DNA of 64,000 bases from Martelella endophytica (lineage in GTDB: Bacteria > Pseudomonadota > Alphaproteobacteria > Rhizobiales > Rhizobiaceae). The position numbers and the translations under genes were made by a program. This document shows positions 1 through 42,108 of this stretch, in pieces. Below the pieces are notes generated by a model that was given only the letters and a program-made list of their open reading frames with translations, was not told the DNA's origin and did not search any database. Within the stretch, counting starts at the first letter, position 1. Each line of letters starts with the position of its first letter. The stretch is from positions 2,073,944-2,137,943 of the forward strand of contig NZ_CP010803.1 in the NCBI RefSeq assembly GCF_000960975.1, in the 5' to 3' direction.

Positions 1-2356
1 TTTTGCAGATTGCCAGACCGACGCCCATGCCATCCTTCTTGGTGGTGAAGAATGGGTTGAACAGCTTGGCGAGATTATCGTCTGAAATGCCGGGGCCATT
101 GTCCGAGATCGTGATGATGGCAAGTCGGTCAGAGGTCTCGTGCGCGCGAACGGCAATTTCCATCTGTCGTTCCGTGGCGGGGCGCTCACGCATGGCCTGG
201 ATGGCGTTCGTTATCAGGTTCGTCAGTAGCTGCTGCATCTCCAGACGGTCGGCCTGGATGAAGATCGAGGGCTCAGCAAGCCGGAATGCGACTCGCACGC
301 GTGCGGTCAGCAACTCACGTTCCATAAGATCAAGCACTTCTGAAATCAGCGTCTTGACCTCAAGAGCTCCTACGCTTCGCTTTTCGCCACGCAGCAATTC
401 ACGCGTCTTCTGAATGATCTTGCTGGCCCTGAGGCTGTGCTGAACCGCACGCTCGGCGGCTTTCGTCGCCGACTGTATATCGGGCGGGCTTGCAGCAAGC
501 CAGCGCATGCAGGCCTGTGCGCTCATCACGGCTGCCCCGATAGGTTGGTTCACCTCATGGGCAATGGAAGCAGATATGGCCCCGACTGTTGCAATCCGTC
601 CGGCGCGAGCCAGCTCCCCTTGCGCCAGAAGCATCGCTTCGCGGGCATGTTCGCGCTCCGTGATGTCAACAATAGCGCAAGCAACTCGCTCGAGCGCATT
701 CGACGGCAGCGCCAGTACGATATGGACCAGCCGCTCTCCTCCATTTCGGTCGATGAGCGCCGTCTCGGTTTCGAGTTGCGATGCACCAGCCGAAAGTGCG
801 GCAAGCATCTTAACCGGCAATTCGCTTTCGGGCGGAAGAAATACGCTGATCGGTCCCAAAACCTCGCTCGCTCGTTCACATCCGAGCAGCTGAAGCGTTG
901 CGCGGTTCGCATCGGCGAGAAGGATGAGATCGCCGAAGCTTTCTGGATTTTGCGGTCCGCATTTAGGTGAGGTCGCGCCGCGGTGTTGGCTCGGTTCCTT
1001 TGCCTCGTTGATCACCAAATCGGCGAGCTGTGAGAGGTCAATTTCGCACAAGGCGATGTGATTCTGTTCGAAGATGGAGCGGTACCGTGCCTCGCTCTTT
1101 GATAGGTCGGAAAGCGCACGTCGTCTGGCGCTGGCGTCGAAGGCGACGAGACTAATCCCACCCATGAGCGTTACATAGAAGCCTACGGCCACAAGCCCGC
1201 TCATATTGGCGAGCGTTTGAGAGATGATCGGCGAGAAAGCGCCACCAAGAATGCCGCCGATGTTGAAAGCAACAGACGTTCCGGTGTAGCGCACACGGGC
1301 AGGAAAGAGGCCTGGCAGCCAAGCGCCGAGTGGACCATTGACGACGCCCATGACGGTAAGAGAAAAGGCGAGCAGCATGAATATCGTCACCAGAGAGCCG
1401 CTGCCAAGCATGGGCGCAAGCACTATTCCGGTGACGATCGTGCCGTAGCAGCCGAACATCAGTACGCGTTCGGCATCCTGCCGGTCGGACCACCAGCTTG
1501 CCAGGATGATCGCCACTGCCATGAAGCCGATCGCGGCCAGCTCAATCATCAGGAAGGTTGAGCGTTCGTAGCCGAGTACGCCCGTGCCGTAGCCGAGCAT
1601 GAATGCAGTGACCGTATAGTAGAGCGAAAAGCAGGCAATCACCCCAAGGGCACCGATGATGACTTCACGCCACTGGTTCTTGAACACCTCGAGAAGGGGA
1701 ACCGATGCCGGACTTTCATCCGCCATGGCCTCGGAGTATTCGCGTGTTTCTACCAGATTAAAGCGAACCCAAAGCCCGAGCCAGACTAGTGGAGCGCTTG
1801 CAATGAATGGAATACGCCATCCCCAATCGGCAAAATCTTCGGGTGTCAGGCAAAGCGTTAGGATTAAGAACAGTCCATTGGCCAGCACAAACCCAACAGG
1901 CGCGCCAAGCGGCGCGAACATCGCATAGCGCGTTTTCCAGCCTGGCGGGGCGTTTTCAAAAGCGATGAGCGCCGCGCCGGTCCATTCGCCGCCGAGCGCC
2001 AGGCCCTGACCGAACCGCAACAGGCACAGCAGCAGTGGAGCGAGCCATCCAGCCACGGCATAGGTGGGGAGGAAGCCGATTGCGGCGCTACAAATGCCCA
2101 TGAGCAGCAGTGAGATGACCAGTGTGGTCTTGCGGCCGACACGATCGCCGAAATGCCCGAACAGCGTGCCGCCAAGGGGGCGGGCGATGAAGGCAATGCC
2201 GAAGCTTGCGTAGGCGCCGAGAAGTTCTGCCGAGGAGACGCCTGAGGGAAAGAAGATCGGTCCGAAGATCAGGCTTGCGGCCGTTGCGTAGATGTAGAAA
2301 TCGTAGAACTCGACCGAGGTCCCGATCAGGCTCGAGAGCAGGATGCGTCTGGTCAT
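1..2356 (-). CDS. MFS (MHS-type) transporter fused to PAS/histidine kinase, 3' end beyond window
   Basis: One uninterrupted minus-strand frame runs from an ATG at 2354-2356 off the left edge (785 codons seen). Residues about 1-410 form a 12-helix MFS permease of the metabolite:H+ symporter type (SLIGTSVEFYDFYIYATAA near the start, FGDRVGRKTT loop). From about 420 a PAS-like segment begins (SEARYRSIFEQN), then a DHp helix with SIAHEVNQP (phospho-acceptor near His600), an N box (LITNAIQAM) and a G box (FFTTKKDGMGVGLAIC). Kinase and permease therefore share one chain, so the permease part is probably the signal sensor or a transport-coupled switch, as proposed for CbrA-type transporter kinases. 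A TTG at 2396-2398 is an alternative start; an in-frame stop lies at 2435-2437. It is divergent from a FixJ-like regulator, its likely partner. The frame reading is direct; the ligand is unknown. Confidence 0.85.
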   Translation of the reverse strand, partial: MTRRILLSSLIGTSVEFYDFYIYATAASLIFGPIFFPSGVSSAELLGAYASFGIAFIARPLGGTLFGHFGDRVGRKTTLVISLLLMGICSAAIGFLPTYAVAGWLAPLLLCLLRFGQGLALGGEWTGAALIAFENAPPGWKTRYAMFAPLGAPVGFVLANGLFLILTLCLTPEDFADWGWRIPFIASAPLVWLGLWVRFNLVETREYSEAMADESPASVPLLEVFKNQWREVIIGALGVIACFSLYYTVTAFMLGYGTGVLGYERSTFLMIELAAIGFMAVAIILASWWSDRQDAERVLMFGCYGTIVTGIVLAPMLGSGSLVTIFMLLAFSLTVMGVVNGPLGAWLPGLFPARVRYTGTSVAFNIGGILGGAFSPIISQTLANMSGLVAVGFYVTLMGGISLVAFDASARRRALSDLSKSEARYRSIFEQNHIALCEIDLSQLADLVINEAKEPSQHRGATSPKCGPQNPESFGDLILLADANRATLQLLGCERASEVLGPISVFLPPESELPVKMLAALSAGASQLETETALIDRNGGERLVHIVLALPSNALERVACAIVDITEREHAREAMLLAQGELARAGRIATVGAISASIAHEVNQPIGAAVMSAQACMRWLAASPPDIQSATKAAERAVQHSLRASKIIQKTRELLRGEKRSVGALEVKTLISEVLDLMERELLTARVRVAFRLAEPSIFIQADRLEMQQLLTNLITNAIQAMRERPATERQMEIAVRAHETSDRLAIITISDNGPGISDDNLAKLFNPFFTTKKDGMGVGLAICK

Positions 2357-2543
2357 CCGGTCTTTGGTGAAGGTCTTGGCTTGGTTCAGATTGGGCAATG
2401 CATCGGCCGTGCAGCAGAGGATCCAGACACGACCTTATAGGTCGGGCGACATGAGACGACAGTTTGCCCGCCCCGATGGCCCATGTCATCTGAACTCATG
2501 GATAGGTACACGCGTGGAAGCGGTCATGCGAAGCTTTCATCGA

Positions 2544-2553
2544 ATCGTATGAC
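2544..2553. promoter_or_regulatory. ATCGTATGAC motif, copy 1
   Basis: The 10-mer ATCGTATGAC lies in the divergent region between the transporter-kinase fusion and the FixJ-like gene, 44 bases before that gene's ATG. The identical 10-mer recurs at 3289-3298 upstream of the next gene. A binding site for the local FixJ-family regulator is an inference. Confidence 0.4.
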
Positions 2554-2597
2554 ATGCCCGCGCGATCGCCGGCACCAGTGAGCAAAGAGAAACTTTC

Positions 2598-3266
2598 ATG
2601 TCACCTCTGGCAGGCGGTAGCCCAAGCGGCAGCACACATGCGCTCTCAGGCAAGACCGACAGCAAGCCGATGGTTGTTGTTGTCGACGACGACGAGGGCT
2701 TGCGCACAAGCCTTATTGATGTATTGCGCTCCGTAGGCGTCGAAGCAGTGGGATACGGCTCAACTGCTCCCCTGCTTGACGGTTCCTTGCCGGCGCAAGC
2801 GGCCTGTATCATCCTGGATATCCGGCTGCCAGGGATAAGCGGGCTTGATTTTCAGGACAAGCTGCAGGCGAGCGGCATCCACCTCCCCATCATCTTTATG
2901 ACCGGATTCGGCGATGTTCCGATGAGTGTGCGCGCGATGAAGGCAGGGGCGCTGGACTTCTTGACCAAGCCGTTCCGCGATCAGGAGATCATCGATGCCG
3001 TCTCGCTTGCGATCGAGCGAGATACCGAACGGCGTCAGCAGCTCGCCCAACGGCGTAACCTAGAGATGCTTGTCGCGACGTTGACGCCGCGAGAGAGTGA
3101 AGTGATGGGACATGTCATTGCGGGTCTTCTGAACAAGCAGATCGCGTTTGAGCTCGGATTGAGCGAAATCACCGTGAAGATTCATCGCGGCAATCTGATG
3201 AGGAAAATGAAGTGCAACTCGGTGGCCGAGCTTGTTCTCAAGACCGAGCCGCTACGCCAGATCTAG
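2598..3266 (+). CDS. FixJ/NarL-family response regulator
   Basis: 222 residues. An N-terminal receiver (VVVVDDDEG acidic pocket, phospho-acceptor Asp in LDIRLPG, Lys in FLTKPFR) is followed by a LuxR-type helix-turn-helix (LTPRESEVM, IAFELGLSEITVKIHRGNLMRKM). This is the FixJ layout: phosphorylation by a sensor kinase should release DNA binding and activate transcription. It starts from the divergent region opposite the transporter-kinase fusion, so that kinase is the probable partner. A close homologue lies at 11646-12272 in a second cluster. The first 24 residues precede the receiver core, and the start could be a little further in. Confidence 0.9.
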   Translation: MSPLAGGSPSGSTHALSGKTDSKPMVVVVDDDEGLRTSLIDVLRSVGVEAVGYGSTAPLLDGSLPAQAACIILDIRLPGISGLDFQDKLQASGIHLPIIFMTGFGDVPMSVRAMKAGALDFLTKPFRDQEIIDAVSLAIERDTERRQQLAQRRNLEMLVATLTPRESEVMGHVIAGLLNKQIAFELGLSEITVKIHRGNLMRKMKCNSVAELVLKTEPLRQI

Positions 3267-12272: not shown

Positions 12273-13430
12273 ATCTTCATCGCATTCCTGGTTACGTCAT
12301 CTGCCTTCACCGGTGATGACAGCGCGTGTTTCCGATATCTGCCTGATTTCCGATCCAAATCGTTCCGGCGGACGATTTGGACCAACCTTCCTAAACGGAG
12401 GTAACACCAGACTTTCTGTTCCGGCAATCCCGCTTGCGCAGTCGGCTCCCAGCTCCTGTGTTGCTGGAAGACAACGGTAGATTTTAGCGCTGCGGAGGAG
12501 GTTGCATAGCTGTTCCTAGGGATAGGTCGTGGTAAGAGGTCATGAAGATGACTGTATCGCGGATTCCCGTCTGGTGGGGTGTTGCTGCCACAGATTGGGC
12601 GCTGCTAAACCGCCCAATCATCGGCGGTAAGGTTCCGGTCGCTCTCAGCTGTCCGAAACTGTTCATGGCTGGCAGTATCGCGATGGAACTGGGCGGGCTC
12701 GCGAGTGCTGCTTCTCTTCCCATTGCGGTGGACGAGCGGGGCACTTGGCATTGCCGTTTTCGGTGGCGTCATGACAGCGCCGGTTCTGCGCGGATCTTAC
12801 GTGTCACACCAAATCTAATTCACCGGCGGTCATCAATGGCGGCCTGGGGAGTGATCGCATTGATGCCCGATGCATTTGGACCGGCCACCGTATCTGCTTT
12901 TGGCGCTGCCGTAAAAGAACGTCCGAGATTGGCGTCAGTGTTATGGCTTTTGCGTTCAAACCGTCTTTAACGCTCGCTGGCACAGTCCTCGTGACGGCCG
13001 GGCAGAAGCCGGGCTGATGTCATTGGTCGCGCTTAGGCAACCTGAGCACAGGCGCGCAAGTGTGCTTTGAATGCCGGTTCTGCCACCCCATTGAGGATTG
13101 ATTTAACGTCGCGCACGGAGGCAATAAAAAACGACTTCAACAATGCGCCAGGGGCGCGGGTCTTTGATCACACATTGGCGGCATCGTTCTTTGGAAGCAG
13201 TTATTGATCCATCTCTGATGATACATAGGTGCAACGCCGTCCTTCATCGCTGAACGCCCTTTGATCGTCAAATTGGTGGGTTCCGGAAGCAGAACTATGC
13301 AAGTCTTTATGCTACTTCTGCTTTTCTTTCCGTTTTGTTTTTTCACAAAAATCGAGCACTTTTGATTCATCAAGGCTCCTCGCACGCCGGGGGTAAAATT
13401 CCCTTTGAACCGGAAAGTGGATGCAAAGAA
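12273..13430. other. 1.16-kb region without a confident gene
   Basis: Open frames here (12484-12744 minus, 12542-12970 plus) show no family features. A frame around 12738-12790 reads GALGIAVFGGVMTAPVL, like the last membrane helices of RND efflux pumps, then hits a stop, so this may be eroded sequence. At 13145-13157 is a small GC repeat (GCGCC-AGG-GGCGC). Because the mobilization genes start at 13431, the transfer origin may lie in the last 400 bases, but I see no nic motif I would trust. Confidence 0.4.
12354..12381. repeat. Perfect 10-bp inverted repeat upstream of FixJ-like gene
   Basis: Arms TCCAAATCGT (12354-12363) and ACGATTTGGA (12372-12381) around an 8-base GC-rich spacer. There is no T-run on either side, so a dimer operator is more likely than a terminator. 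It lies 82 bases before the minus-strand regulator start. Confidence 0.55.
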
Positions 13431-13757
13431 ATGGCTGGACGCCCAAGAAAAGCCGAAGCGGAAAAGAGCAAACAGAGGGAAGTGTGGACGACAGATTGTC
13501 GTTGGGCGGAGATCCGTCACGAGGCAAAGGCTGCGGGAATGACGATTTCAGCCTATCTCTGCCAGAGGCGTACTGACCGCCCGATCAGCGCCAGGCAGGG
13601 ATTGCTGATCATCGAGACCTTGCAAGCTATCCGGGATCGGCAGGACCATCTGGTCGATGTGATTGACAGGAACGGCGGGAATGCTCAAGTGCTTCAGGCG
13701 CTTCTCCGACTTGAGCGTGCCTATGATCGTGTCGTTGACGGCTTGGTGTTCCGATGA
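13431..13757 (+). CDS. MobC-like mobilization accessory protein
   Basis: 108 residues from ATG 13431 (AAAGAA ribosome site); an in-frame upstream ATG is less likely. A basic start (GRPRKAEAEKSKQREVW) precedes a ribbon-helix-helix-like segment (RWAEIRHEAKAAGMTISAYLCQRRTDRP), then a helical tail. This is the arrangement of MobC/relaxosome accessory proteins, which help the relaxase bind and melt the transfer origin. Its stop overlaps the relaxase start by four bases (ATGA), showing translational coupling. Confidence 0.75.
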   Translation: MAGRPRKAEAEKSKQREVWTTDCRWAEIRHEAKAAGMTISAYLCQRRTDRPISARQGLLIIETLQAIRDRQDHLVDVIDRNGGNAQVLQALLRLERAYDRVVDGLVFR

Positions 13758-15739
13758 TTCTGGGATGGTCGCCGCATAGCGGAGCGGATCTGCGGAGTAA
13801 TCTGATGGCAGCGATCCGGTATCTGATCGCGCAGCGCGTAACCAAGGACATGAACGGGCAGCGCCTTGCTGTTCTCCGCGACCCTGCGCCGGAAGTCCTG
13901 ATCAGTGACCCGCGGCTCGTGCTGGCTGCGATGCAGCTTCTGGAGTCCAAGCATCGCTATTCGGTCGCGACCCTGTCCTTTGATCGCAGCGATATTGATG
14001 TCGCCGCATTCAATGCCGGCCATGCCGCCTCGCGAATGAAGGTTGGCCAGACATTGGACCTCTTCTTCCATGTGGCCTATGCCGGGCTGCCGCAGAGAGC
14101 CTGCCTTCATCCGCTTGTCGGCACGCACACGCATACCGGTCGACTGGAGGTGAACATCATGCTGCCACGCACGGTTTTGAAAGCAGATGGTAGCCCGCGC
14201 GCCTATAACGCCAATCCACCCGGGCGGGGCAGCCGCAGCCTTTGGGATTCCTTTCGTGATACGGTCAATGGCCGTTTCGGGTGGGCAGACCCTCTTTCAC
14301 CGCTGCGAAAGCGCGATTTTGCAATGCCCGACAGGCAGCTAAAGCAAAGACGCGAGGCCGAGCGGAATGGCAATGATCCTGGCGCCGATCTGCGTGACAG
14401 GATCATCGAGATTGCCGCAGCCCACCTTGATTACACCCGCATATTTTCGCGGGAAATGCTTCTTGATGCTATTGCGCCGGAGCTGTCTGAGCTCGGCATT
14501 CGCGTCAAACGCAAGAACCTTCGTACGACAACGTTCACAGGCCCCGGTCTGGAACGTGATATCCGGCTGTCCGGCTATGCCTTTTCAGATTTCTTTCGCG
14601 AGGAAGACCCGCGACATAGCCTGTCGATGGGCGAGCGTCTGATCGAAAGAGCGGACGAGCTCCGGCGGGCGCCATCACTTTTGGCCGAGGGAATGGAAAG
14701 GCGTGCGGCGCTCAATCGGTCCCGGTTGCGGTACCACTATCCGGATACGGTGCTGGAACGGCCCGGTGATATTCTGAGCGGACCGGGACTTTCACTGCCG
14801 GCCTGCCATCAGGACCACCTGGCGCTTTCCGGCACCTTGTTCAGGCAGAGGTTCAAAAGAGCTGCAAACCGTATCTGGACAGAACGGGACGGCGAGACAG
14901 CACCATGGTCGGAAAAGGTTCGGATATCGAGCGACCTCGATATTCATCGATCACCGTTGTCCGCAGACGCCAGATCAGCGGGAACGAATAAGATCACGCG
15001 TCGGATTGGAGAACTGTTCAGGCGTCTGCTCGGCCGCCTGATTGAACGGCAGGCGTCTCACCTTTTGGCGAAGTCGCTTTTGCGCCTTGATCAGGCACGG
15101 TGGAGATCCCTTGAAAAACGATTGGAGTCAATGAATGGAAAAGAGGAAGGAAGCGCAGGTGAACTGGGAGGAGCTCGGTCGGGACATCAAGCGCCTGACA
15201 GCGCTGATCGACCCGTTGGAAATGCTTTTGATGCAGGAGAAAAATCCGGATATCTCGGCCCGGATCGAGCGGTTCATAGACCAGATCCAGCGCGTGGCGG
15301 ACCAGATGGATCGCGCGGTGACGGCGCTGGAGGCCGATCAGGAAACGCGGCGGAAAGTGAAGCATATCGAGACGCAGATCCTGGCGCAGACACAAGATAT
15401 ATCGGCAATGAGAAACGATCTTTCAAAGGTCTTGGCGGCGCTGGGCCAGCCGCTGGGAACGTAATAGCACCGCCGACAAGGGCAGAGCTGATCCGGAGAG
15501 TGGCGGAGGCAGCGGCACAGCGCGGTCAAACCATGCCGCGTGTCAGTTTCGTTGTCTATCAGGGCCAGGAGATGCTTCGTGGACAGACCCCCGACGGACA
15601 TTTCCTTTATGACGGAAGCCGTGCATTGGACTTCAATCGCGACGGCCTTGTGCGTGAGTTGAGGGTTGGGGCAGTAGAGACGGCATCACCCTTCGAGGAT
15701 GGTGACCCCGATGCAGCGCCTGACTTGCCGGAATTGTGA
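13754..15739 (+). CDS. MobA/VirD2-like relaxase (probable)
   Basis: 661 residues. The N-terminal 200 residues fit a conjugative relaxase: an early helix with RYLIAQRV, then HPLVGTHTHTGRLEVNIM, which resembles the three-histidine metal motif followed by an Asn, and a long basic helical part after 200. It should nick the transfer origin and lead DNA out using a conjugation apparatus supplied in trans, since no type IV secretion genes are here. Residues about 460-570 read as Gly/Arg/Asp/Pro-rich low-complexity sequence exactly where a second gene (15135-15464) is encoded in the +1 frame. The last 80 residues look protein-like again (ELIRRVAEAAAQRGQTMPRV). Family call is moderate. Confidence 0.6.
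   Translation: MILGWSPHSGADLRSNLMAAIRYLIAQRVTKDMNGQRLAVLRDPAPEVLISDPRLVLAAMQLLESKHRYSVATLSFDRSDIDVAAFNAGHAASRMKVGQTLDLFFHVAYAGLPQRACLHPLVGTHTHTGRLEVNIMLPRTVLKADGSPRAYNANPPGRGSRSLWDSFRDTVNGRFGWADPLSPLRKRDFAMPDRQLKQRREAERNGNDPGADLRDRIIEIAAAHLDYTRIFSREMLLDAIAPELSELGIRVKRKNLRTTTFTGPGLERDIRLSGYAFSDFFREEDPRHSLSMGERLIERADELRRAPSLLAEGMERRAALNRSRLRYHYPDTVLERPGDILSGPGLSLPACHQDHLALSGTLFRQRFKRAANRIWTERDGETAPWSEKVRISSDLDIHRSPLSADARSAGTNKITRRIGELFRRLLGRLIERQASHLLAKSLLRLDQARWRSLEKRLESMNGKEEGSAGELGGARSGHQAPDSADRPVGNAFDAGEKSGYLGPDRAVHRPDPARGGPDGSRGDGAGGRSGNAAESEAYRDADPGADTRYIGNEKRSFKGLGGAGPAAGNVIAPPTRAELIRRVAEAAAQRGQTMPRVSFVVYQGQEMLRGQTPDGHFLYDGSRALDFNRDGLVRELRVGAVETASPFEDGDPDAAPDLPEL
15135..15464 (+). CDS. 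Nested coiled-coil mobilization protein (MobB-like position)
   Basis: 109 residues encoded wholly inside the relaxase gene in the +1 frame, with its own GGAG seven bases before the ATG. The product is helical with heptad character (WEELGRDIKRLTALIDPLEML, FIDQIQRVADQMDRAVTALE, KHIETQILAQTQDISAM) and normal amino-acid composition. The relaxase frame over the same bases is degenerate. This is the same trick as mobB inside mobA of RSF1010, although I see no sequence likeness strong enough to use that name. It probably belongs to the relaxosome. Confidence 0.7.
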   Translation: MEKRKEAQVNWEELGRDIKRLTALIDPLEMLLMQEKNPDISARIERFIDQIQRVADQMDRAVTALEADQETRRKVKHIETQILAQTQDISAMRNDLSKVLAALGQPLGT

Positions 15740-15930
15740 TCCCGGTGCTCGTTGTCGATGCTGAACGCGCCGGTGCCAAATGGCGCGTCATGTGTCCGTC
15801 CTCTGACCTGATGCTCTTTATGGAGAATCCTGAGTTTTTGCCGGTCCTGTTTCGGCAGTTTTCCTTGTTGCGTTCCGTTTGGCCTGAGGCTCTCTCATGT
15901 TCTCTTCCAGGATGCCGGTATCCGGTGTGA
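15736..15930 (+). CDS. Possible small ORF coupled to relaxase stop
   Basis: 64 codons from a GTG overlapping the relaxase stop (GTGA). The first 30 residues look plausible (IPVLVVDAERAGAKWRVMCPSSDLML); the second half runs antisense to the end of the FtsH-like gene. It may be a real coupled gene whose end was replaced by that neighbour, or chance. Confidence 0.25.
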   Translation: MIPVLVVDAERAGAKWRVMCPSSDLMLFMENPEFLPVLFRQFSLLRSVWPEALSCSLPGCRYPV

Positions 15931-18115
15931 TGCTCTCGAGCATTTTCTCGAGGCGAGCACCGACCAGTTCGCGGTCCTCCATCAGTGCTTTTGCCATCGC
16001 TTCCAGCTCGAAATGATGGCGCTGGAGGATTCCGGTTGCCAGCGTCTCCGCGTTCAGGAGACGCTGCTGGACACGCTGTCTCTGGGCGGGGTCATGAAGT
16101 GCAAGTCCGTCGGCATCACCGCGCCAGACCGGACCATAGGCGCCAAGCCCCAGCTGATGGTCGATCTGCAGGGCCATGTTCGTGGCTCGGGCAAGATCCG
16201 ACTGTCGGCTGCCACCCGCACCTGCCGAAATCTCGCCGAGGACGAGACGCTCCGCCGCCCGCCCGGCCATCAGGCACGCGATCTCAGCGTGGACATCACG
16301 CAGTAGGGATTGATTGCGACGGTTCTGCGTCACGGTTTCGCCGCCCAGCGGTTCCAGCATGATGCGCGTGACCGGACCGAGCGCGAGCGCGGTGGCGACG
16401 ATGGCATGGCCGCACTCATGCAATGCGATGCGCCAATCGAGCGCCTGGTCGGCCTCGGAGTGGGAATAGCCGATAAGCGTGCGGAGGTCTTGGAACTCAA
16501 GCGCCCTGTTCTGGCTGCGTGCGATCGACTTTGCCTGCCTGACGGCGGCATCCACATCGGCAGCGGTCATGCCGATTGCGGCTCGCGCCAGGTCATCGAT
16601 ATCTGACAGTGAGAATTCCGCCGGAAGCCGGGATCTGAGAATGCCCGCAATCTCCACCTTTCCAGGCAGCGGTACCTGAACCTTGCGGTCGAAACGTCCG
16701 GGACGCAGGATGGCGGGATCAAGGCCCGCGATGTCATTGCAGGCGCCGATCAGGAGAACACCCTCCTCGCGCATCAGCAGATCGATCTGCTCAAGAACGG
16801 CGTTGATGACCTGTCGCCTGTATGAACTGTTATGATTATCCGTGTCGTAGCGGCTGCCGGCGGCGTCGACCTCATCGATGAACAGGATCGAGGGTTTCTT
16901 TGCAATCGCCCCCGCGAACGCCCGGCGCATGGCCGCCAGCATGTCCCCGAGATGCCCGGCGCTCTGCCACTCGGCAAAGGAACCCTGAACGAAAGAAATC
17001 CCGGCGCTTGCCCCCATGGCGCGGGCCAGCCAGCTTTTTCCGGTTCCCGGAGGACCGTGGAGAATCATTGACCGCGTCAGTTCCGACCATTCGCACGTGC
17101 CCTCCTTCCATGCGGCGAGGTCGGCGACCATGTGCCGCGCCGCCTGCAGGGCCGGACTGTTGCCGTCCATATCCTCCAGCCGAGGACCGTCTGGTTTTTG
17201 CCTCTTCGATGATTTCTCCGCTGCCGATGACAGCCGGTCCACGACCCCGCGCGCCGTTGGCGCACGCAGTGCAGCGGACAGGACCGAGCCAGGCAGTTCC
17301 GTGAGCGCCTTTTTATCCGGAAGCCGCTCAAGTAAGGCGGCGTGGTCTTTTCCATCGCTAAGCCCGTGACTGTAGCGCAGATGTTCGCCACAGATCGCCC
17401 GGCTCAGTGGCGCAATCGGCACTGGCGCAGGCAGGGCGCGTTTCAGATCTGGCGGGAACTCGCACCCTCTGGGAACCAGGACGAACAGACGATCAGGAAG
17501 CGATAAAGCCGTGCGGATGTCGGATCCGAAAATAGTGAGTACACGTTCAGCAACCCGGCCATTGGTGATCTCGGGAGCCAGCAGGCAAAGTGCGTTCGGC
17601 TCGCCTTTGAGCATCCTCGCCTCGGAGGCTACAATCCATCCGGGTGGCATGACGATCAGTGTCAGGAGATCCTGCGCGAGGGCCACTTCCTGCGGCTCGA
17701 TATTCCCTAACACGAAGACCGAACTGGCCGCGCCAAAGCAGGCGATGAACGCATCCTCGCTGCCAAAAGTGGCTGCAAGTTTCAGTGCCAGCGAGAGCGT
17801 CGGGTGCGGAATCGGCTGCATTGGTGATGGGCTGTCCTCCTCAGACATGGAAATATCAAGCGCATCGCCGTCGAAATCAGGGTGACCGGTGAAGTCGCCT
17901 TCATCGCTTTCCTCGTCCACATAGGATGGGGCGCGCTTGTTGAGAAAATCCAGCAAACCTGGCTGCGCATGCTCTTGTGTTCTATGCGGGCCAACGCTGT
18001 TCCACTTGTTGACCGAGCGGCCAGGGTGGCGATCCAGCTGCGGGTTTAGGCGAAGTCGGCGGATGAGCTCTTCGCCATATGCGGCCCATGCGGGGCGTGG
18101 TGCGTGATCCGTCAT
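15818..18115 (-). CDS. Soluble FtsH-like AAA+ ATPase/M41 metalloprotease
   Basis: 765 residues; GGAGGATCCGCC precedes the ATG. The C-terminal half is FtsH-like: Walker A GPPGTGKS (354-361), Walker B ILFIDEVDA, second region of homology NDIAGLDPAILRPGRFDR, then the M41 zinc site HECGH (566-570) and the third-ligand segment SDLARAT. FtsH unfolds and degrades membrane and soluble proteins. Unlike FtsH, the first 340 residues have no membrane helices; they form an acidic low-complexity stretch and an unfamiliar domain (AFIACFGAASSVFVLGN). It is therefore probably a cytoplasmic protease with its own substrate-selection domain. It converges with the mobilization operon and overlaps the small ORF there. 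Protease and ATPase sites look intact. Confidence 0.85.
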   Translation of the reverse strand: MTDHAPRPAWAAYGEELIRRLRLNPQLDRHPGRSVNKWNSVGPHRTQEHAQPGLLDFLNKRAPSYVDEESDEGDFTGHPDFDGDALDISMSEEDSPSPMQPIPHPTLSLALKLAATFGSEDAFIACFGAASSVFVLGNIEPQEVALAQDLLTLIVMPPGWIVASEARMLKGEPNALCLLAPEITNGRVAERVLTIFGSDIRTALSLPDRLFVLVPRGCEFPPDLKRALPAPVPIAPLSRAICGEHLRYSHGLSDGKDHAALLERLPDKKALTELPGSVLSAALRAPTARGVVDRLSSAAEKSSKRQKPDGPRLEDMDGNSPALQAARHMVADLAAWKEGTCEWSELTRSMILHGPPGTGKSWLARAMGASAGISFVQGSFAEWQSAGHLGDMLAAMRRAFAGAIAKKPSILFIDEVDAAGSRYDTDNHNSSYRRQVINAVLEQIDLLMREEGVLLIGACNDIAGLDPAILRPGRFDRKVQVPLPGKVEIAGILRSRLPAEFSLSDIDDLARAAIGMTAADVDAAVRQAKSIARSQNRALEFQDLRTLIGYSHSEADQALDWRIALHECGHAIVATALALGPVTRIMLEPLGGETVTQNRRNQSLLRDVHAEIACLMAGRAAERLVLGEISAGAGGSRQSDLARATNMALQIDHQLGLGAYGPVWRGDADGLALHDPAQRQRVQQRLLNAETLATGILQRHHFELEAMAKALMEDRELVGARLEKMLESITPDTGILEENMREPQAKRNATRKTAETGPAKTQDSP

Positions 18116-26714: not shown

Positions 26715-26936
26715 AACGGAACTCTGTCGTGAAATGGCAGGCTAATACTTTTTGATTCTAATAGACCTGAATGCGGGTGCGGCGGTCAAGGTTCCGCTTT
26801 TCGGGCGGGAAAGCCTGAAGCGGGAGGATTGTGTGTGATCTCTGGCGCGTGTTTGGCGGAGCTTTTCGACTGTACCCGCAATGTCTGCCAGTCTTGCCTT
26901 CGGAAGGGCGCCATTCTGGATTCGGGGAATTTCGAT

Positions 26937-29900
26937 ATGCCAATGCCATCCATTGCCGATCGCCATCTTGCGCTTGCGCCTTTTGCCGGGGGCGAGCGGC
27001 ATGCCTTTCGGCCCAGGTGGTTGCAAGCCGTTCTTCTCGCGACTGCCGCAGTTTCGGCGCTTGGCGCGAGTCCGGCCTTTGCCGAAGGCGGGTTGCCGGG
27101 TGGCCCCAGCGTGGTCTCCGGTACGGCCAATATCGCATCGACGGGTTCGGCCATGACCGTCACGCAGGGCTCTGATCGCGCCATCGTCAACTGGCAGAGC
27201 TTCAATGTCGGCCAGGGCAACAGCGTCAATTTCGTTCAGCCGGGCATCAACGCGGCGATCCTCAACCGCGTCACCGGCAACACCCGGTCCTCGATTGCCG
27301 GCGCGATCAGCGGCAACGGTCAGGTTTTCCTCGTCAACCCCAATGGCATTGCGATCACGCCGACCGGAACGGTCAAGGCCGGCGGCGGTTTCGTTGCTTC
27401 CACACTCGATATCACCGATGACGACTTCATGTCCGGCAATATGGTGTATCGCGGCAATGGTGCATCGAGCACGGTTTCCAATAAAGGCGTGGTGACGATC
27501 GGGCGCGGCGGCTATGTCGCGCTGATGGGCGGAAAGGTGAAGAACAGCGGTTTGATCGCCGTGCCCTATGGCAAGGCGGGGCTCGGCGCGGGCGAGGAGG
27601 TTACGCTCGATCTGTCCGGTGACGGCTTCATGCAGGTGGCCGTTCCATCCTCTCTCATCGATGACGGCGAGGCGCTGGTCGAGAACTCCGGCACGGTGAC
27701 GGCCGAGGGCGGCGTGATCGTGATGAAGGCGGCGACCGCGCGGGCAGCGGCGCGCAATGCCGTCAACCTTTCAGGCGTCGCCGAGGCGCGCTCGGTCTCG
27801 GGGCGCAACGGCAAGATCACGCTCGGCGGCGGGGCGGGCGGCAAGGTCAGGGTTTCCGGCACGGTCTCGACCCGCGCCAAGGCCGCCCAGCCGAAGACCA
27901 CCGAGGGCGGCGCGATCGAAATCACCGGGCTCGAGATCCGGCTTGACGACGCCGTGATCGATGCCTCCGGCTATGCCGCGGGCGGCAAGGTGCGCATCGG
28001 CGGCGACTGGCAGGGCGCCGGCGATATTCCGCATGCCGATATCCTGACGGTCAGCGCTGGCACGATGATCAGCGCGGATGCGGTGAGCCAGGGCACTGGC
28101 GGCTCGGTTGTGCTGTGGTCCGACACCCGCACCGACTTTGCCGGCCAGATCAGCGCCACCGGCGCCACCGGAACCGGCGGCGATGTCGAGGTCTCCGGCA
28201 AGGCGCTGCTTTCCTATACCGGTTTTGCCGATCTGACGGGCGCTGCAGGCTTCGGCTCGCTGTTGCTCGATCCCTATAATGTGACCATCTCGAACGCCGC
28301 GGACCAGACGTCTTCCGGCTTCACCGCTTCGGGCAATGACAGTGTCATCAATGTCGCCACGCTGCAAAACGCGCTTGCCGGCGCCAATGTCACGGTTTCG
28401 ACCGGCGCGGGCGGCAGCCAGGACGGCGATATTACCGTTGCCGACGCCGTCACCTGGACCTCGGGCTCCACGCTGACGCTGTCGGCCTATCGCAACATCG
28501 CCGTCAATGCCAATCTTGCAGGCGGCGCGGGGTCGAAGATCGTGCTGCGCGCCGACAGCAGCGCCACCGGCAGCGGCACGGTCAGTTTCGGTTCCGGGAT
28601 CACTGCCACTGCGGACGGTGGCGTTTCGCTCTACTACAATCCGGCGTCTTACAGCGCGCCGGTCGATTATTCGACAAATGCAGGCAGCGGCACGATGCTG
28701 ACGGCTTACATGCTGGTCAACACGCTCGGCAATCTCCAGGCGATCAACGCCACCACCAGCAGTCTCGCCGGCACCTATGCGCTCGGAACGGATATCGACG
28801 CCAGCGCGACCGCCGGCTGGAATGGCGGCGCAGGTTTCGAGCCGATCGGAAATGGAAGTTCGCAGTTCACAGGCACATTTGACGGGGAGGGGCATGTGAT
28901 CACCGGGCTGACGATCAATCGCTCCGATACGGATTATGTCGGCCTGTTCGGATCTGCCGGTTCCGGTTCGATCCTGCGCAATGTCGGCCTTGTGGGTGGC
29001 AGCGTTTCGGGCAGCGGCTATGTTGGTGGGCTGGCCGGGTACAATTATGGCAAGATCAGCAATGCCTATGCGACCGGCAGCGTTTCGGGCGGCAGCTACT
29101 ATGTAGGCGGGCTGGTCGGGTTCAATGATGATGGCACGATCAGCAATGCCTATGCGACCGGCAGCGTTTCGGGCGGCGGCGATGTCGGCGGGCTGGTCGG
29201 GTTCAATAATGATGGCACGATCACAGCATCCTATTTCGATACGGACACGACGAAACAGTCGAATGGCGTCGGCGGAGGCTCCGCTGCCGGCGTGACCGGC
29301 TTGACGACCGCCGAGGCACGCACGCAAGCCGGCTACACAGGCTTCGATTTCGACAACACCTGGTATCAGGCCGGCGATATGCGCCCGATCCTTCGCTCCG
29401 AAGCGGCAGCGCCCGTGGATGGGGTGATCACGGTGTCCAACCTGCACCAGTTGGCGCTGATGGGCGCCGATCTTTCCGCAAGCTACCGGCTTTCCGGCGA
29501 TATTGATGCCAGCGCCACGGACGCCGCAGCCGACGATTACGATGCGAGCGGCATCTGGGGTGCTGGCGGCTTCGTGCCGATCGGCACGAGTTTCAGTTCG
29601 GCTTTCGCCGGCACGTTTGATGGTGACGGGCATGTGATCCGCGGGCTGGCGATCAATCGTCCCGGCACGGATTACGTCGGCCTGTTCGGGCTTGCAGATT
29701 CCAGGTCGATCCTGCGCAATGTCGGCCTTGATGGTGGCATCGTCACGGGCAACTTATATTTCGGCGGGCTGGTCGGGGTCAATGCTGGCACGATCAGCAA
29801 TGCCTATGCGACCGGCAGCGTTATGGGCAGCGGCGACTTTGTCGGCGGGCTGGTCGGGTTCAATCGGGGTACGATCAGCAATGCCTATGCGACCGGCAGC

Positions 29901-32900
29901 GTTGCGGGCGGCTCCCATGCCGGCGGGCTGGTCGGGTACAATGAAGGGGGCACGATCAACAATGCCTATGCGACCGGCATCGTTACGGGCGGCTACGATG
30001 TCGGCGGGCTGGTCGGGTACAATGATGCTGGCACGATCAGCAATGCCTATGCGACCGGTAGAGTTACGGGCAGCGGCTACTATGCCGGCGGGCTGGTCGG
30101 GTATAATGATAGGGGCACGATCAGCAATGCCTATGCGACCGGCAGTGTTTCGTCCCCAGACCATGTCGGCGGACTGGTCGGCGGCACTCTTTCTGGCACG
30201 ATCAGCTATGCCTATGCGACCGGCAGCGTCACGGGCGGCTCCTATGTCGGCGGGCTGGTCGGGTCCAATTCCGGTGCCAAGATCACAGCATCCTATTTCG
30301 ATACGGACACCACGAACCAGTCGAACGGCGTCGGCTCAGGCGACGGCGAAGTGACCGGGCTGACCACCGAAGAGTTTCAGGATACGGCCGAGTTCTACGC
30401 ACGGGCTTTGGCCGGCTGGAATTTCGAGACGGTCTGGGCGCCGCCGAGCGAAGGCTATTATCCGGAGCTCTACGCACTTTCCGATGTGGTCTTCGTCAAG
30501 ACCGACGGCCAGACGATCACCTATGGCGATGCGCCGGGCACACTCACCTATAGCGTTTACGGTGGTCACAGCGGCGCGGGCGTTTTCGCGCCGACGCTGA
30601 CAACGGATGCCACGGCGACATCCAATGTCGGCAGCTACGCCATCACCGGCCAATCGAGCCTTGTCGGCGATGACGGGATCACATACCGCACCGTCTACGG
30701 GCCCGGCGCGGTGACGATAAACAGGGCGCCGCTGAGGGTCACTGCCAATAGTGGCTCGATGATCTATGGCGACGATGTTCCTGGCGATATCGGCTACACC
30801 GCAACCGGGTGGAAGAACGGTCAGACGAGCGCACTTCTGACGGGTGTCAGCGTCGATACCAATGCGACCAAGACCTCGAATGCCGGAACCGGCTACGCCA
30901 CCACAGCCTCTGGCGGCACGCTGTCGGGCGCTGCGGCCGGCAATTACGCGATCAGCTATGTCGGTAGCGGTTTCGAGGTCAACAAGGCGCCGCTGAGGGT
31001 CACTGCCGATAGTGGCTCGATGATCTATGGCGACGATGTTCCTGGCGATATCGGCTACACCGCAACCGGGTGGAAGAACGGTCAGACGAGCGCACTTCTG
31101 ACGGGTGTCAGTGTCGGCACCAATGCGACCAAGACCTCGAATGTGGGAACCGGCTACGCCACCATAGCCTCTGGCGGCACGCTGTCGGGCGCTGCGGCCG
31201 GCAATTACGCGATCAGCTATGTCGGTGGCGGTTTCGCGGTCAACAAGGCAGAACTGACGGTCACTGCCAATAGTGGCACGATGAGCTATGGCTCAACGCC
31301 GCCGACCGATCTCGGCTACACGGTTTCCGGCTGGAAGAATTCCGACATCGGCAGCGTGACTGGCGCAAGCGTCGTTACCGATGCGATGTCGACCTCGAAC
31401 GTTGGCAGCGGCTACGTCACCACCGCGTCCGGCGGGATGATCACAAGCACGGCCGCGGGCAATTACGTTCTTTCCTATGCGCCTGGCAGCTTCTCGGTTA
31501 CCCCACGTGCCTTGAAGATCAGGGCCAAGGGCGCATCGAAGACCTACGGCGAAGTCGCCAGCCTGACCGCCTATTCGGTCAACGGCCTTGTCAACGGCGA
31601 CACGGTAAGCACGGTCACGTTGACGAGCGCGGGCAGCGCCGCGTCCGCAAATGCCGCCACTTATGATATCATTGCCTCCAACGCGACCGGCTCGGGCCTT
31701 TCCAACTACGCGATCGACTATGTCGATGGCGCGCTGACGGTTGCAAAGGCCAAGCTGACGGTCACGGCTGATAACGGCTCGATGATCTACGGCGATGCCG
31801 TGCCGATGATCGGCTACGCTGTCAGTGGCTGGAAAAACGGACAGAGCGATGCGTTTCTGGTCGGGGTGATCGTCACCACGAATGCGAACCCGACCTCTAA
31901 TGTCGGTACCTACTATTCAACGATGGCGGCCGGCGGGCAATTGGGCGGCGCGGCCTTCGGCAATTACACTCTCGACCATGTCGATGGTAAGTTCGCTGTG
32001 ACCCCGCGGGCCCTGACAGTGACGGCATCGGATGCGGTCAAGACCTATGGCGATACAGCCAGCCTGACCGGTTTCACCACCACCGGGCTCGTTAATGGCG
32101 ACAGCGTCGCCGCCGTTTCCGAAAAGAGCCTTGGCGCGGACGCAGAGGCTGACTCCGGCGTCTACGACATCATTGCCAGCGCCGCGAAGGGCACGGGTCT
32201 TTCGAACTACGACATCAATTACGAGAAAGGCACGCTGACGGTCGACAAGGCGGCGCTGACGGTCACGGCCGATAGCGGCTCGATGATCTATGGCGATGCC
32301 GTGCCCATGATCGGCTACGCGGTTTCGGGCTGGAAGAACGGCCAGAATGGACCGCTGCTTTCCGGGGTTTTCGTGACGACGGATGCGACATCGTCTTCCG
32401 ATGTCGGGAGCGGCTATAGCACCGCCGCTTTTGGGGGCGCGCTTTCGGGTGCTGCGGCGGGCAATTACGACATCAGCTATGTGGCCGGGTCGATGGCGAT
32501 CCAGCGCCGTGCGATCACGGTTGTAGCCGATGCTGGTGCCAAGATCTATGGCGATCTCGGCCTGTTGACCTACACGGTCGGCGGGATGGGGCTTGCCAAT
32601 GGCGACAGGCTTTCAGGCAAGCTGGAGAGCGACGGCCAGGCCATGCTGGCGAATGTCGGTTCTTATGCCGTCACCCAGGGTTCGGTGACAGACGCCTTCA
32701 ACCGCAATTATGCAATCAGCTATCGTGCAAATACGCTCGCCGTCATGCCGCGGCCGATCACCCTGATTGCCGACGATGCCGTCAAGCAGCTTGGCACGCA
32801 AGCAGGCGTGATGGGCTGGCAGGTCACGGCAGGCAATCTCGTCGATGGCGGCGCGTCGCTGAACGGCAGTCCCGCAAGCCGCGGCGCACCGACTTCTGCG

Positions 32901-33203
32901 ACGGTCGGCACCTATGCTATTACCGCAGGCAGTCTAACCGACGCCGAAAATCCCAACTATGCCATCACATTTCTGCCGGGCAAGCTGCAGGTGATGCCGG
33001 TTCTGGCGCCGTCGGCTCCGGCTGGTGGCGTTCCGCTTCCCGGCCAGCAATTCGATCCGTTTACGGTTGCCGGCGGGTCGCTTCAGGAGGCGCTCCTTGC
33101 CGACAACATCAATCCGCCGGGAACGCTGACCGTCACCAGTCAATCCCCCGTTTCCAATGCCGCCTGCGATGCAGGGCCTCAAATCCTGTTCATATGCCCA
33201 TAG
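26937..33203 (+). CDS. TpsA-type exoprotein/adhesin with TPS, GLUG and MBG-like repeats
   Basis: 2088 residues from ATG 26937 (GGGGAA upstream); a GTG at 26835 after GGGAGGA would give a longer leader, as some TpsA proteins have. A signal peptide (WLQAVLLATAAVSALGASPAFA) precedes the TPS/haemagglutination domain (NWQSFNVGQGNSVNF, NPNGIAITPTG), which the TpsB partner recognises. The middle holds GLUG repeats (YVGGLVGYN...ISNAYATGSV). From about residue 1175 tandem MBG-like modules of roughly 85-90 residues follow (GSMIYGD..., GWKNGQ, GNYAISYV), ending in a Pro/Gly-rich tail. It is secreted across the outer membrane and probably mediates attachment or biofilm. tpsB follows 68 bases downstream. 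Confidence 0.9.
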   Translation: MPMPSIADRHLALAPFAGGERHAFRPRWLQAVLLATAAVSALGASPAFAEGGLPGGPSVVSGTANIASTGSAMTVTQGSDRAIVNWQSFNVGQGNSVNFVQPGINAAILNRVTGNTRSSIAGAISGNGQVFLVNPNGIAITPTGTVKAGGGFVASTLDITDDDFMSGNMVYRGNGASSTVSNKGVVTIGRGGYVALMGGKVKNSGLIAVPYGKAGLGAGEEVTLDLSGDGFMQVAVPSSLIDDGEALVENSGTVTAEGGVIVMKAATARAAARNAVNLSGVAEARSVSGRNGKITLGGGAGGKVRVSGTVSTRAKAAQPKTTEGGAIEITGLEIRLDDAVIDASGYAAGGKVRIGGDWQGAGDIPHADILTVSAGTMISADAVSQGTGGSVVLWSDTRTDFAGQISATGATGTGGDVEVSGKALLSYTGFADLTGAAGFGSLLLDPYNVTISNAADQTSSGFTASGNDSVINVATLQNALAGANVTVSTGAGGSQDGDITVADAVTWTSGSTLTLSAYRNIAVNANLAGGAGSKIVLRADSSATGSGTVSFGSGITATADGGVSLYYNPASYSAPVDYSTNAGSGTMLTAYMLVNTLGNLQAINATTSSLAGTYALGTDIDASATAGWNGGAGFEPIGNGSSQFTGTFDGEGHVITGLTINRSDTDYVGLFGSAGSGSILRNVGLVGGSVSGSGYVGGLAGYNYGKISNAYATGSVSGGSYYVGGLVGFNDDGTISNAYATGSVSGGGDVGGLVGFNNDGTITASYFDTDTTKQSNGVGGGSAAGVTGLTTAEARTQAGYTGFDFDNTWYQAGDMRPILRSEAAAPVDGVITVSNLHQLALMGADLSASYRLSGDIDASATDAAADDYDASGIWGAGGFVPIGTSFSSAFAGTFDGDGHVIRGLAINRPGTDYVGLFGLADSRSILRNVGLDGGIVTGNLYFGGLVGVNAGTISNAYATGSVMGSGDFVGGLVGFNRGTISNAYATGSVAGGSHAGGLVGYNEGGTINNAYATGIVTGGYDVGGLVGYNDAGTISNAYATGRVTGSGYYAGGLVGYNDRGTISNAYATGSVSSPDHVGGLVGGTLSGTISYAYATGSVTGGSYVGGLVGSNSGAKITASYFDTDTTNQSNGVGSGDGEVTGLTTEEFQDTAEFYARALAGWNFETVWAPPSEGYYPELYALSDVVFVKTDGQTITYGDAPGTLTYSVYGGHSGAGVFAPTLTTDATATSNVGSYAITGQSSLVGDDGITYRTVYGPGAVTINRAPLRVTANSGSMIYGDDVPGDIGYTATGWKNGQTSALLTGVSVDTNATKTSNAGTGYATTASGGTLSGAAAGNYAISYVGSGFEVNKAPLRVTADSGSMIYGDDVPGDIGYTATGWKNGQTSALLTGVSVGTNATKTSNVGTGYATIASGGTLSGAAAGNYAISYVGGGFAVNKAELTVTANSGTMSYGSTPPTDLGYTVSGWKNSDIGSVTGASVVTDAMSTSNVGSGYVTTASGGMITSTAAGNYVLSYAPGSFSVTPRALKIRAKGASKTYGEVASLTAYSVNGLVNGDTVSTVTLTSAGSAASANAATYDIIASNATGSGLSNYAIDYVDGALTVAKAKLTVTADNGSMIYGDAVPMIGYAVSGWKNGQSDAFLVGVIVTTNANPTSNVGTYYSTMAAGGQLGGAAFGNYTLDHVDGKFAVTPRALTVTASDAVKTYGDTASLTGFTTTGLVNGDSVAAVSEKSLGADAEADSGVYDIIASAAKGTGLSNYDINYEKGTLTVDKAALTVTADSGSMIYGDAVPMIGYAVSGWKNGQNGPLLSGVFVTTDATSSSDVGSGYSTAAFGGALSGAAAGNYDISYVAGSMAIQRRAITVVADAGAKIYGDLGLLTYTVGGMGLANGDRLSGKLESDGQAMLANVGSYAVTQGSVTDAFNRNYAISYRANTLAVMPRPITLIADDAVKQLGTQAGVMGWQVTAGNLVDGGASLNGSPASRGAPTSATVGTYAITAGSLTDAENPNYAITFLPGKLQVMPVLAPSAPAGGVPLPGQQFDPFTVAGGSLQEALLADNINPPGTLTVTSQSPVSNAACDAGPQILFICP
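29035..30290 (+). repeat. GLUG-coding DNA repeats (two blocks)
   Basis: About ten copies of a roughly 75-base unit encoding GGLVG-N-GTISNAYATGSV, in blocks at about 29035-29230 and 29755-30290. The phrases GGCGGGCTGGTCGGG and AATGCCTATGCGACCGGC recur almost unchanged, giving ample substrate for slippage or recombination that would change the adhesin length. Confidence 0.8.
30725..31507 (+). repeat. 261-bp tandem repeats encoding MBG-like modules
   Basis: Copies begin near 30725, 30986 and 31247, exactly 261 bases (87 codons) apart. The first two are almost identical at DNA level, including GGCTCGATGATCTATGGCGA and the following 130 bases; the third is more diverged. Further degenerate modules continue to about 32500. 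Confidence 0.8.
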
Positions 33204-40760: not shown

Positions 40761-40995
40761 GCTGGCGAGTCTGGCGACCTTCGGGACAAGCCCGAAGGTC
40801 TAGAGAAAGTGGGCGGGTTTCGCCAGTATGTTGTAGTCCATTATTGTCCGTCGTTCTTGAGGGAAACCGTTTCAACCCGTGTGATTAGGCGTGGAATAAG
40901 GACCCCGTTAGAGGGGTGATCGGCTTCCAAAAGGGACCCCTTCTGGCACAGGGGTTACAACAGCCTCCGGTTTATCTCGGAGGCTTTTTATTTGG

Positions 40996-42108
40996 ATGCT
41001 TGTTGTGGAAACAATTGCGAAGATACGCCGGCTTGCCCTGACGCAAGGCATGCCGATCAAAGCGATCTGCCGGGAATTGGGCATTTCGCGTAAAGTGGTA
41101 CGGAAGGTTCTGCGCGGTGGTGAGACAGCGTTCTCCTATGAGCGCACGACGCAGCCTCGCCCGAAGCTTGGACCGTGGCAGGACCAGCTCGATGGAATAC
41201 TGCTCGCCAATGATGCCAAGCCGTCGCGCGAACGGCTGACGCTCATCCGGATATATGAAGATCTGCGCGATCAAGGTTACGAAGGCGGCTACGATGCCGT
41301 CCGGCGTTATGCCCGCAAATGGTCTAAGGAGCGCGGTTCTGTTTCGACAGAAGCCTATGTGCCGCTCTATTACGCACCCGGTGAGGCCTACCAGTTCGAC
41401 TGGAGCCACGAGATTGTCGTGCTGAACGGCGTGACGACAACCATCAAGGTGGCGCATGTCCGGCTCTGCCACAGCCGGATGATGTATGTAAGGGCCTATC
41501 CGCGAGAGACACAGGAGATGGTCTTCGACGCCCATGACCGGGCATTCGCCTTCTTCGGCGGGGCTTGTACGCGCGGGATCTATGACAACATGAAGACCGC
41601 GGTGGAGACGGTCTTTGTCGGCAAGGAAAGGCAATACAACCGCCGTTTGTCTCACAGATGTGCAGTCATTTCCTTGTCGAGCCAGTGGCCTGTACGCCGG
41701 CGTCCGGCTGGGAGAAGGGACAGGTCGAGAACCAGGTTAACCTGGTCAGGGAGCGCTTCTTCACACCAAGACTACGCTTCAAGTCCTATGGGGAGCTGAA
41801 CGGGTGGCTGCTGGACAAATGCATCAATTACGCCCGTGCCCACAAACATGTCGATCAGCCACAGCGCACGGTCTGGGACGTCTTCGAGGAAGAGCGATCC
41901 AATCTGATCGGATACCCGGGCAAGTTCGATGGCTTCCATGCTGTTCAGGCCGCGATCGGCAAGACTTGCCTCGTCCGCTTCGACAACAACAAGTATTCCG
42001 TACTGTCGACCGCTGTGGGCCGTCCGGCCGAGATCCACGCATACGCTGAGCACATCGTCATTCGCCAGGATGGCGTCGAGATCGGTCAGCATGAGCGCTG
42101 CTTCGGCC
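40996..42108 (+). pseudogene. istA: istA transposase, frameshifted and 3'-deleted
   Basis: IS21 transposase: N-terminal helix-turn-helix (MPIKAICRELGISRKVVRKVL), DDE parts FDWSHEIV and IYDNMKTAV, then the Glu segment GWEKGQVENQVNLVRERFF. At about 41655 the frame changes (RQYNRR is followed by a shadow; the true continuation MCSHFLVEPVACTPASGW is one frame over). After QHERCFGR near 42105 the gene stops matching because a deletion joins it to istB. Confidence 0.8.

What the first reader, a model, noticed from the sequence alone, without database searches (positions are those of the whole stretch)
15135..15464. Overprinted gene inside the relaxase gene
A 109-codon frame with its own ribosome site encodes a balanced helical protein, while the relaxase frame over the same bases is Gly/Arg/Asp/Pro-rich filler yet stop-free. 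This copies the mobA/mobB arrangement of RSF1010 in a different mobilization family. Selection seems to act mainly on the nested frame.
Basis: partly seen in the sequence, partly recalled or inferred. Interest (0 to 1): 0.7.

Follow-up and report, generated by a model that had tools for sequence, protein, structure and literature searches.

The report
Hidden gene inside a DNA-transfer gene
A small gene for a helical protein lies in a second reading frame inside the gene of a DNA-transfer enzyme, is kept in related bacteria, and carries a trick known from ColE1-type plasmids into a little-noticed branch of transfer modules.

Summary
The nested frame 15135-15464 is very probably a real gene. It lies in the +1 frame of relaxase ORF 13754-15739, with GGAG 7 nt before its ATG. 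Its length alone is not beyond chance. In 18 of 18 loci compared (window included) both frames are open and a helical ORF sits at the same place and frame. In five close pairs the relaxase's third-codon-position share of changes falls from 266 of 481 upstream to 13 of 81 in the overlap (p=1.9e-11). The nested protein keeps similarity between window and Paracoccus yeei (blastp E 1e-26); the relaxase frame does not (E 0.09). The relaxase frame runs on into a shared C-terminal domain, so both frames seem used.

The relaxase carries the HEN motif of ColE1 MbeA, and ColE1-type relaxase genes already contain internal +1-frame mob genes: the arrangement is known. New is the nested protein, soluble and coiled-coil-like, without detected homology to MbeB or MbeD; an MbeD-like nested gene exists in 10 of 18 loci but not in the window's group. 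In 10 related plasmid loci annotation lists one frame, never both, and 6 are typed non-mobilizable. Function (relaxosome accessory) is inferred.

The parts
13321..15740 (+). extent of the mobilization module shared with relatives
   Evidence: DNA similarity of 94.9% to L003 covers 13322-15740 and to L004 13333-15740; the broken second copy in the own genome (L002) covers 13321-14336; L005 runs on beyond to 20459
13335..13757 (+). MobC-like accessory gene (ribbon-helix-helix type, NikA-like); an in-frame ATG at 13431 is the likelier start (inferred)
   Evidence: Pfam PF21983 NikA-like, E 3.1e-7, 30.9 bits against cut-off 27
13754..15739 (+). relaxase gene (MOBP, HEN type), 661 aa, contains the nested gene
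   Evidence: motif III H-x6-E-x-N in 18 of 18 loci; NCBIfam MbeA NF047848 E 4.9e-5, 22.6 bits, far below its cut-off of 500; tblastn relatives on plasmids
13820..13822 (+). codon of Tyr23, likely catalytic tyrosine of motif I
   Evidence: column conserved in the alignment of 18 relaxases, read by eye; role inferred from Y19 of ColE-type MobA (PMC9282650, passages)
14126..14155 (+). motif III HTHTGRLEVN (HEN)
   Evidence: pattern found in 18 of 18 relaxases
15124..15127 (+). GGAG, likely ribosome-binding site of the nested gene; 7 nt before the ATG
   Evidence: GGAG 7 or 10 nt before the nested ATG in 18 of 18 loci, read; the same bases also encode a conserved Leu-Glu of the relaxase, so they are not free evidence
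15135..15464 (+). nested gene, 109 aa, helical, no membrane segment, +1 frame of the relaxase
15476..15736 (+). C-terminal domain of the relaxase frame after the overlap, conserved in relatives; no Pfam or PHROG match
   Evidence: alignment of 18 relaxases

Best explanation
A mobilization module of the ColE1 (MOBP-HEN) type sits in the chromosome of a Martelella-like bacterium. Its relaxase gene carries a second gene overprinted in the +1 frame. Shown by comparison: both frames are kept open, the nested one is under the stronger protein-level selection, and the relaxase frame over it is a poorly conserved Gly/Arg/Asp/Pro-rich stretch linking the relaxase part to a conserved C-terminal domain. 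Inferred: ribosomes start independently at ATG 15135 from the GGAG site on the relaxase mRNA and make a 109-residue soluble coiled-coil protein, which acts with the relaxase and the MobC-like protein at the origin of transfer or at the coupling protein as a mobilization accessory, much as MbeB/MobB-type proteins do, without their membrane segment.
For: Nested ORF, same place and frame, in 18 of 18 loci, relaxase frame open in all 18. Third-position share of relaxase changes 266 of 481 upstream, 13 of 81 in the overlap, 60 of 135 after it; the window with the lowest share starts within 35 bp of the nested ATG in 4 of 5 pairs. 39 changes in the overlap of 4 close clusters: 20 change the relaxase only, 4 the nested only, 13 both, 2 neither; nested omega 0.38, p=0.006. 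Nested blastp E at or below 1e-3 in 9 of 21 lineage pairs, relaxase frame in 1 of 21. Nested gene found in 7 of 13 genus genomes, 8 of 8 matches without a stop. GGAG before the ATG in 18 of 18. Module boundary at the relaxase stop. Relaxase frame open given the nested protein in 29 of 20,000 draws.
Against: No expression or protein evidence. Length alone is chance-level. Relaxed selection on the relaxase frame is not significant in itself (NN/SN 2.3, p=0.15). Two antisense frames and the other sense frame also show some blastp similarity between lineages (E at or below 1e-3 in 4, 3 and 2 of 21 pairs), as shadows of the nested code would, but weaker. In the Sulfitobacter indolifex group the nested protein matches the profile only weakly (3 loci, E 1e-4 to 2e-3) or not at all (L034), so common descent there is likely but not shown. 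Third-position share is also slightly low after the overlap (p=0.03). Function rests on position only.
Confidence: 0.88

Rival explanations
1. The relaxase is not made through the overlap: translation of the relaxase part ends or fades in the filler, and the three products (relaxase, nested protein, C-terminal protein) are made separately, the last from its own start in the relaxase frame.
For: In L041 the record annotates the nested gene and, right after it, a separate 88-aa gene in the relaxase frame. The filler itself is barely conserved.
Against: No stop codon interrupts the relaxase frame in 18 of 18 loci, which random synonymous codons for the nested proteins rarely allow (0 to 65 of 5000 draws in seven lineages).
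Confidence: 0.1
2. The nested protein is an exclusion or regulatory factor (as MbeD is for entry exclusion) and not a relaxosome accessory.
For: MbeD, also nested in ColE1-type relaxase genes, is credited with entry exclusion (PMC2831885, passages). The window's group has no detected MbeD-like gene, so the 109-aa protein could fill that role.
Against: In 10 of 18 loci the MbeD-like gene and the 109-aa gene stand side by side, so the latter is not a mere substitute there; no profile similarity between them (E 0.16 and 0.0097).
Confidence: 0.25
3. The +1 ORF is a chance by-product of GC-rich coding sequence and codon bias, without a product.
For: ORFs of this length in the +1 frame are common in the window (12 of 38 ORFs) and in synonymous shuffles (12,633 of 20,000).
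Against: Codon-position signal p=1.9e-11, nested protein conserved where the relaxase frame is not, same start, site and frame in 18 of 18.
Confidence: 0.03

Closest known systems
ColE1-type (MOBP5/HEN) mobilization modules: mbeC, mbeA with internal mbeB and mbeD
   Same: HEN relaxase, RHH accessory gene just upstream, small helical proteins encoded in the +1 frame inside the relaxase gene. In pSNC3-Kan mobB (2347-2865) and mobD (2872-3105) lie inside mobA (1659-3212), both +1 by my arithmetic (PMC9282650, passages). L047 carries annotated MbeB and MbeD the same way.
   Different: The 109-aa nested protein shows no detected homology to MbeB or MbeD and no membrane segment (hydropathy maximum 0.49, and at most 1.28 in seven lineages, against 1.86-2.21 in three MbeB-type proteins); no MbeB or MbeD found in the window's module; the relaxase runs on into its own C-terminal domain; chromosomal.
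MOBP5(HEN) modules of Paracoccus plasmids pMARC2 and pAES4
   Same: Alphaproteobacterial HEN relaxases with overlapping mobA, mobB and mobC (PMC3832669, passages).
   Different: Described there as similar to pAsal2 proteins; their sequences were not compared here.
RSF1010/R1162 mobA/mobB (MOBQ)
   Same: A small mobilization protein read in another frame inside the relaxase gene (recalled; for pAsa3/pAsal1 mobB overlapping mobA in different frames, PMC4655240, passages).
   Different: Other relaxase family; MobB has a C-terminal membrane domain (PMC4655240, passages), the nested protein here has none.

Membership tests
MOBP-HEN (ColE1 MbeA-type) relaxase | motif III with H, E and N (H-x6-E-x-N) | tested here: met
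   18 of 18 relaxases; motif definition from PMC12857230 and PMC9282650, passages
MOBP-HEN (ColE1 MbeA-type) relaxase | single catalytic tyrosine in motif I near the N-terminus | tested here: met
   Tyr23 column conserved in the alignment, read by eye
MOBP-HEN (ColE1 MbeA-type) relaxase | sequence match to the MbeA family model | tested here: inconclusive
   NF047848 E 4.9e-5, 22.6 bits against a cut-off of 500; L031 gives no match; the relative L035 gives 5.2e-50, also under cut-off; no Pfam match for four N-terminal parts
MOBP-HEN (ColE1 MbeA-type) relaxase | RHH accessory protein (MbeC/NikA type) encoded just upstream | tested here: met
   PF21983 NikA-like, E 3.1e-7
MbeB family | homology to MbeB | tested here: not met
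   hhalign E 0.19 against three MbeB-type proteins, shallow profiles; MbeB-type profile hits none of the window-group loci
MbeB family | membrane segment | tested here: not met
   hydropathy maximum at most 1.28 in seven lineages against 1.86-2.21 in three MbeB-type proteins
MbeD family | homology to MbeD | tested here: not met
   hhalign E 0.16; the separate 62-63-aa nested protein of sister loci does match (E 4e-6)
ColE1-type mobilization module | relaxase-dependent transfer from an oriT | not testable with these tools
   no transfer data; oriT not identified

The most novel reading that the evidence does not exclude
A new family of overprinted mobilization proteins: a soluble coiled-coil relaxosome factor born inside HEN relaxase genes of Alphaproteobacteria, standing beside an MbeD-like nested gene in most sister loci and alone in the window's group, so that one relaxase gene has hosted two or more independently evolved nested proteins in its fast-evolving linker, which serves as a cradle for new genes.
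Probability: 0.4. Interest if true: 0.62.

Novelty: new variant of a known kind. Interest (0 to 1): 0.45.

Why it matters
It gives a clean natural case of overprinting with comparative proof, in a gene where a disordered linker tolerates a second frame. It shows that ColE1-style internal mob genes reach chromosomal and large-plasmid modules of Alphaproteobacteria with a different nested protein. It also has a practical side: of 10 related plasmid loci, 3 have the relaxase annotated, 7 have the nested gene annotated, none has both (the plasmid gene table is known to be incomplete), and 6 of 10 plasmids are typed non-mobilizable. Table 1 of PMC9025767 lists Sulfitobacter indolifex pDSM14862_a, _b and _d with mobility 'no' (passages), though each holds a match to this relaxase. 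Mobility typing of such plasmids is therefore likely too low.

Tried and rejected
Chance ORF length as evidence: rejected. RSF1010 as the nearest relative: replaced by ColE1 MbeA type. Nested protein as MbeB or MbeD: no profile match, but profiles are shallow. Family libraries for the nested protein: only weak composition-type matches, such as GrpE 19.2 bits against cut-off 25.8, NCBIfam hits far under cut-off, among them a cytotoxin-subunit model at 20.5 bits against 360, PHROGs E 0.003 or weaker for the window protein; PDB profile search gave designed coiled coils first (8a3k, E 2.5e-5) and other long helices: read as coiled-coil composition, not kinship. Relaxase N-terminus in viral contigs: 4 candidates, none confirmed. 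Nested profile in 385 class genomes: only the own genome. G222b nested protein in plasmids: no match. Promoter scan: none found, 1.0 expected by chance. Structure prediction of the nested protein was tried nine times and never accepted because the machine was busy, so no fold evidence exists.

Own errors: one search read three unnamed-genome loci (L008, L009, L010) on the wrong strand; repeated correctly. One search used non-ATG starts for L041 and L043; corrected to the ATG. One search stopped with a file error in its second half; that half was rerun. One search failed on a wrong frame; rerun with right coordinates.

Dropped before counts: one search examined 23 loci; the 18 counted are the alphaproteobacterial clade (10 of them plasmid loci); left out were L012, L035, L036, L047 and L048, which are more distant and carry MbeB/MbeD-type nested genes or end early. 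Of the 151 plasmid records I fetched those of 14 annotated-region calls in all (some chosen). NZ_CP084952 and the Paracoccus aminovorans record were not fetched; the first has a nested match of 80.4%.

Full report
Observation. The window holds a MobC-like gene (13335-13757, likely start 13431), then a 661-aa ORF 13754-15739, and inside it a 109-codon ORF 15135-15464 in the +1 frame. GGAG at 15124-15127 lies 7 nt before the nested ATG, and a TGA in the nested frame stands directly before it, so the nested frame cannot be entered from upstream in its own frame.

Is it more than chance? Not by length. 12 of 38 main ORFs of the window have a +1 stop-free run of at least 109 codons and 12,633 of 20,000 synonymous shuffles of the relaxase do as well or better. 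The other direction is more telling: random synonymous codons for the nested protein leave the relaxase frame open in 29 of 20,000 draws; in seven lineages the figures are 1, 2, 8, 9, 1, 65 and 0 of 5000. The plain base rate of an open +2 frame over 109 codons is higher, 1149 of 12,621, so this alone is moderate evidence per lineage.

Homologues. Relaxase searches gave close relatives in the same genus, on Paracoccus yeei plasmids and on Sulfitobacter plasmids. The named near matches are Martelella (nested protein 96-99% identical), so the window is probably Martelella (inferred). Of 18 loci compared, window included, 18 have the nested ORF at the same place in the same frame, GGAG 7 or 10 nt before the ATG, and the relaxase frame open from start to stop. 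A profile of 13 nested proteins matches the window group, four other same-genus loci, four P. yeei and two Sulfitobacter loci strongly; L041, L042 and L043 weakly (E 1e-4 to 2e-3) and L034 not at E 0.01. In the genus, 7 of 13 genomes carry the nested gene, 8 of 8 matches without a stop. It is rare: 1 of 385 genomes of the class, the own one.

Selection. In five independent close pairs the relaxase changes by codon position are 122/93/266 upstream, 47/21/13 in the overlap and 33/42/60 after it; the third-position share falls from 0.55 to 0.16 (Fisher 1.9e-11) and is 0.44 after the overlap (p=0.03). In 4 of 5 pairs the 109-codon window with the lowest share starts within 35 bp of the nested ATG; the fifth pair has only two changes in the overlap. 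The MbeD-like nested stretch of three pairs shows the same direction without significance (7 of 19, p=0.16). Of 39 changes in the overlap of four tight clusters, 20 alter only the relaxase, 4 only the nested protein, 13 both and 2 neither. Nested omega is 0.38 (p=0.006); the relaxase ratio is 2.3 but not different from neutral (p=0.15). Across seven lineages (21 pairs) the nested frame has blastp E at or below 1e-3 in 9 pairs, the relaxase frame in 1, the other sense frame in 2, the antisense frames in 4, 3 and 0. Selection thus acts mainly on the nested frame; the relaxase frame is held open.

Why held open. After the overlap the relaxase frame encodes a domain conserved in the genus and P. 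yeei, less so in Sulfitobacter, with no Pfam or PHROG match. DNA similarity of two relatives ends at the relaxase stop (13322-15740 and 13333-15740). The overlapped stretch reads as a linker between the relaxase part and this domain (inferred). In L041 the record annotates this domain as its own gene, a rival reading kept below.

Kind of system. The relaxase has H-x6-E-x-N in 18 of 18 and a conserved Tyr near the N-terminus (by eye). It meets the MbeA model only weakly (E 4.9e-5); its relative L035 meets it at 5e-50. This places it with or near the MOBP-HEN relaxases of ColE1. In those, internally encoded mob proteins are known: mobB and mobD inside mobA of pSNC3-Kan, both +1 by arithmetic on the printed coordinates (PMC9282650, passages), and overlapping mob genes of HEN modules in Paracoccus (PMC3832669, passages). 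mobB overlapping mobA in different frames is also stated for pAsal1/pAsa3 (PMC4655240, passages). So the arrangement is known.

What differs. A 62-63-aa nested protein present in 10 of 18 loci, upstream of the 109-aa one, is an MbeD relative by profile (hhalign E 4e-6, probability 87). It was not found in the window's group or the S. indolifex group. The 109-aa protein shows no match to MbeB or MbeD profiles (E 0.19 and 0.16; shallow profiles) and no membrane segment, unlike three MbeB-type proteins. Its best profile matches among solved structures are designed coiled coils. More distant relaxase relatives also carry +1-frame ORFs weakly like the MbeD-like profile: 11 of the 18 loci in L012-L020 and L022-L030 at E 2.6e-5 to 0.01 (frames worked out from the coordinates), so nested genes look general in this relaxase group.

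Mechanism. Most likely one mRNA from mobC through the relaxase gives the relaxase and, by internal initiation at the GGAG site, the nested protein in fixed proportion. The nested protein probably works in the relaxosome or at the coupling step, as internal mob proteins of this type do. The start is supported by conserved context; the function is inferred from position only. No structure model could be obtained (nine busy replies).

Print. Eight paper searches in an open-licence library listed no paper on this nested family; subscription journals are missing from it. Papers were seen as search listings or passages only.

Noticed in passing
own genome C1:2568763-2569347 (L002:1501-2088): A second relaxase copy, 93% identical over residues 1-195, broken by an insertion-sequence-like element; the inserted DNA (L002:2084-3313) is 99.9% identical to window 40880-42109, so a copy of that element lies in the window. 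IS21-type by eye only.
   Followed up: partly
L021:2576-2767, L031:4100-4291, L033:4112-4300 and relatives: A second, upstream nested gene of 62-63 codons related to MbeD in 10 of 18 loci.
   Followed up: yes
L031, L034, L041, L042, L043, L045: Plasmids typed non-mobilizable although they carry this HEN relaxase; annotation lists one of the two frames, never both, in 10 plasmid loci.
   Followed up: partly
window 15818-18115 (-): AAA ATPase with an M41 peptidase domain (FtsH-like) next to the module, convergent with the relaxase; parts are similar at DNA level (65-67%) downstream of the module in L003 and L004.
   Followed up: no
L041:3516-3782: The relaxase-frame C-terminal domain is annotated as a separate gene directly after the nested gene.
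   Followed up: no
window 26829-33203 (+): Very long ORF of 2124 aa, not examined.
   Followed up: no
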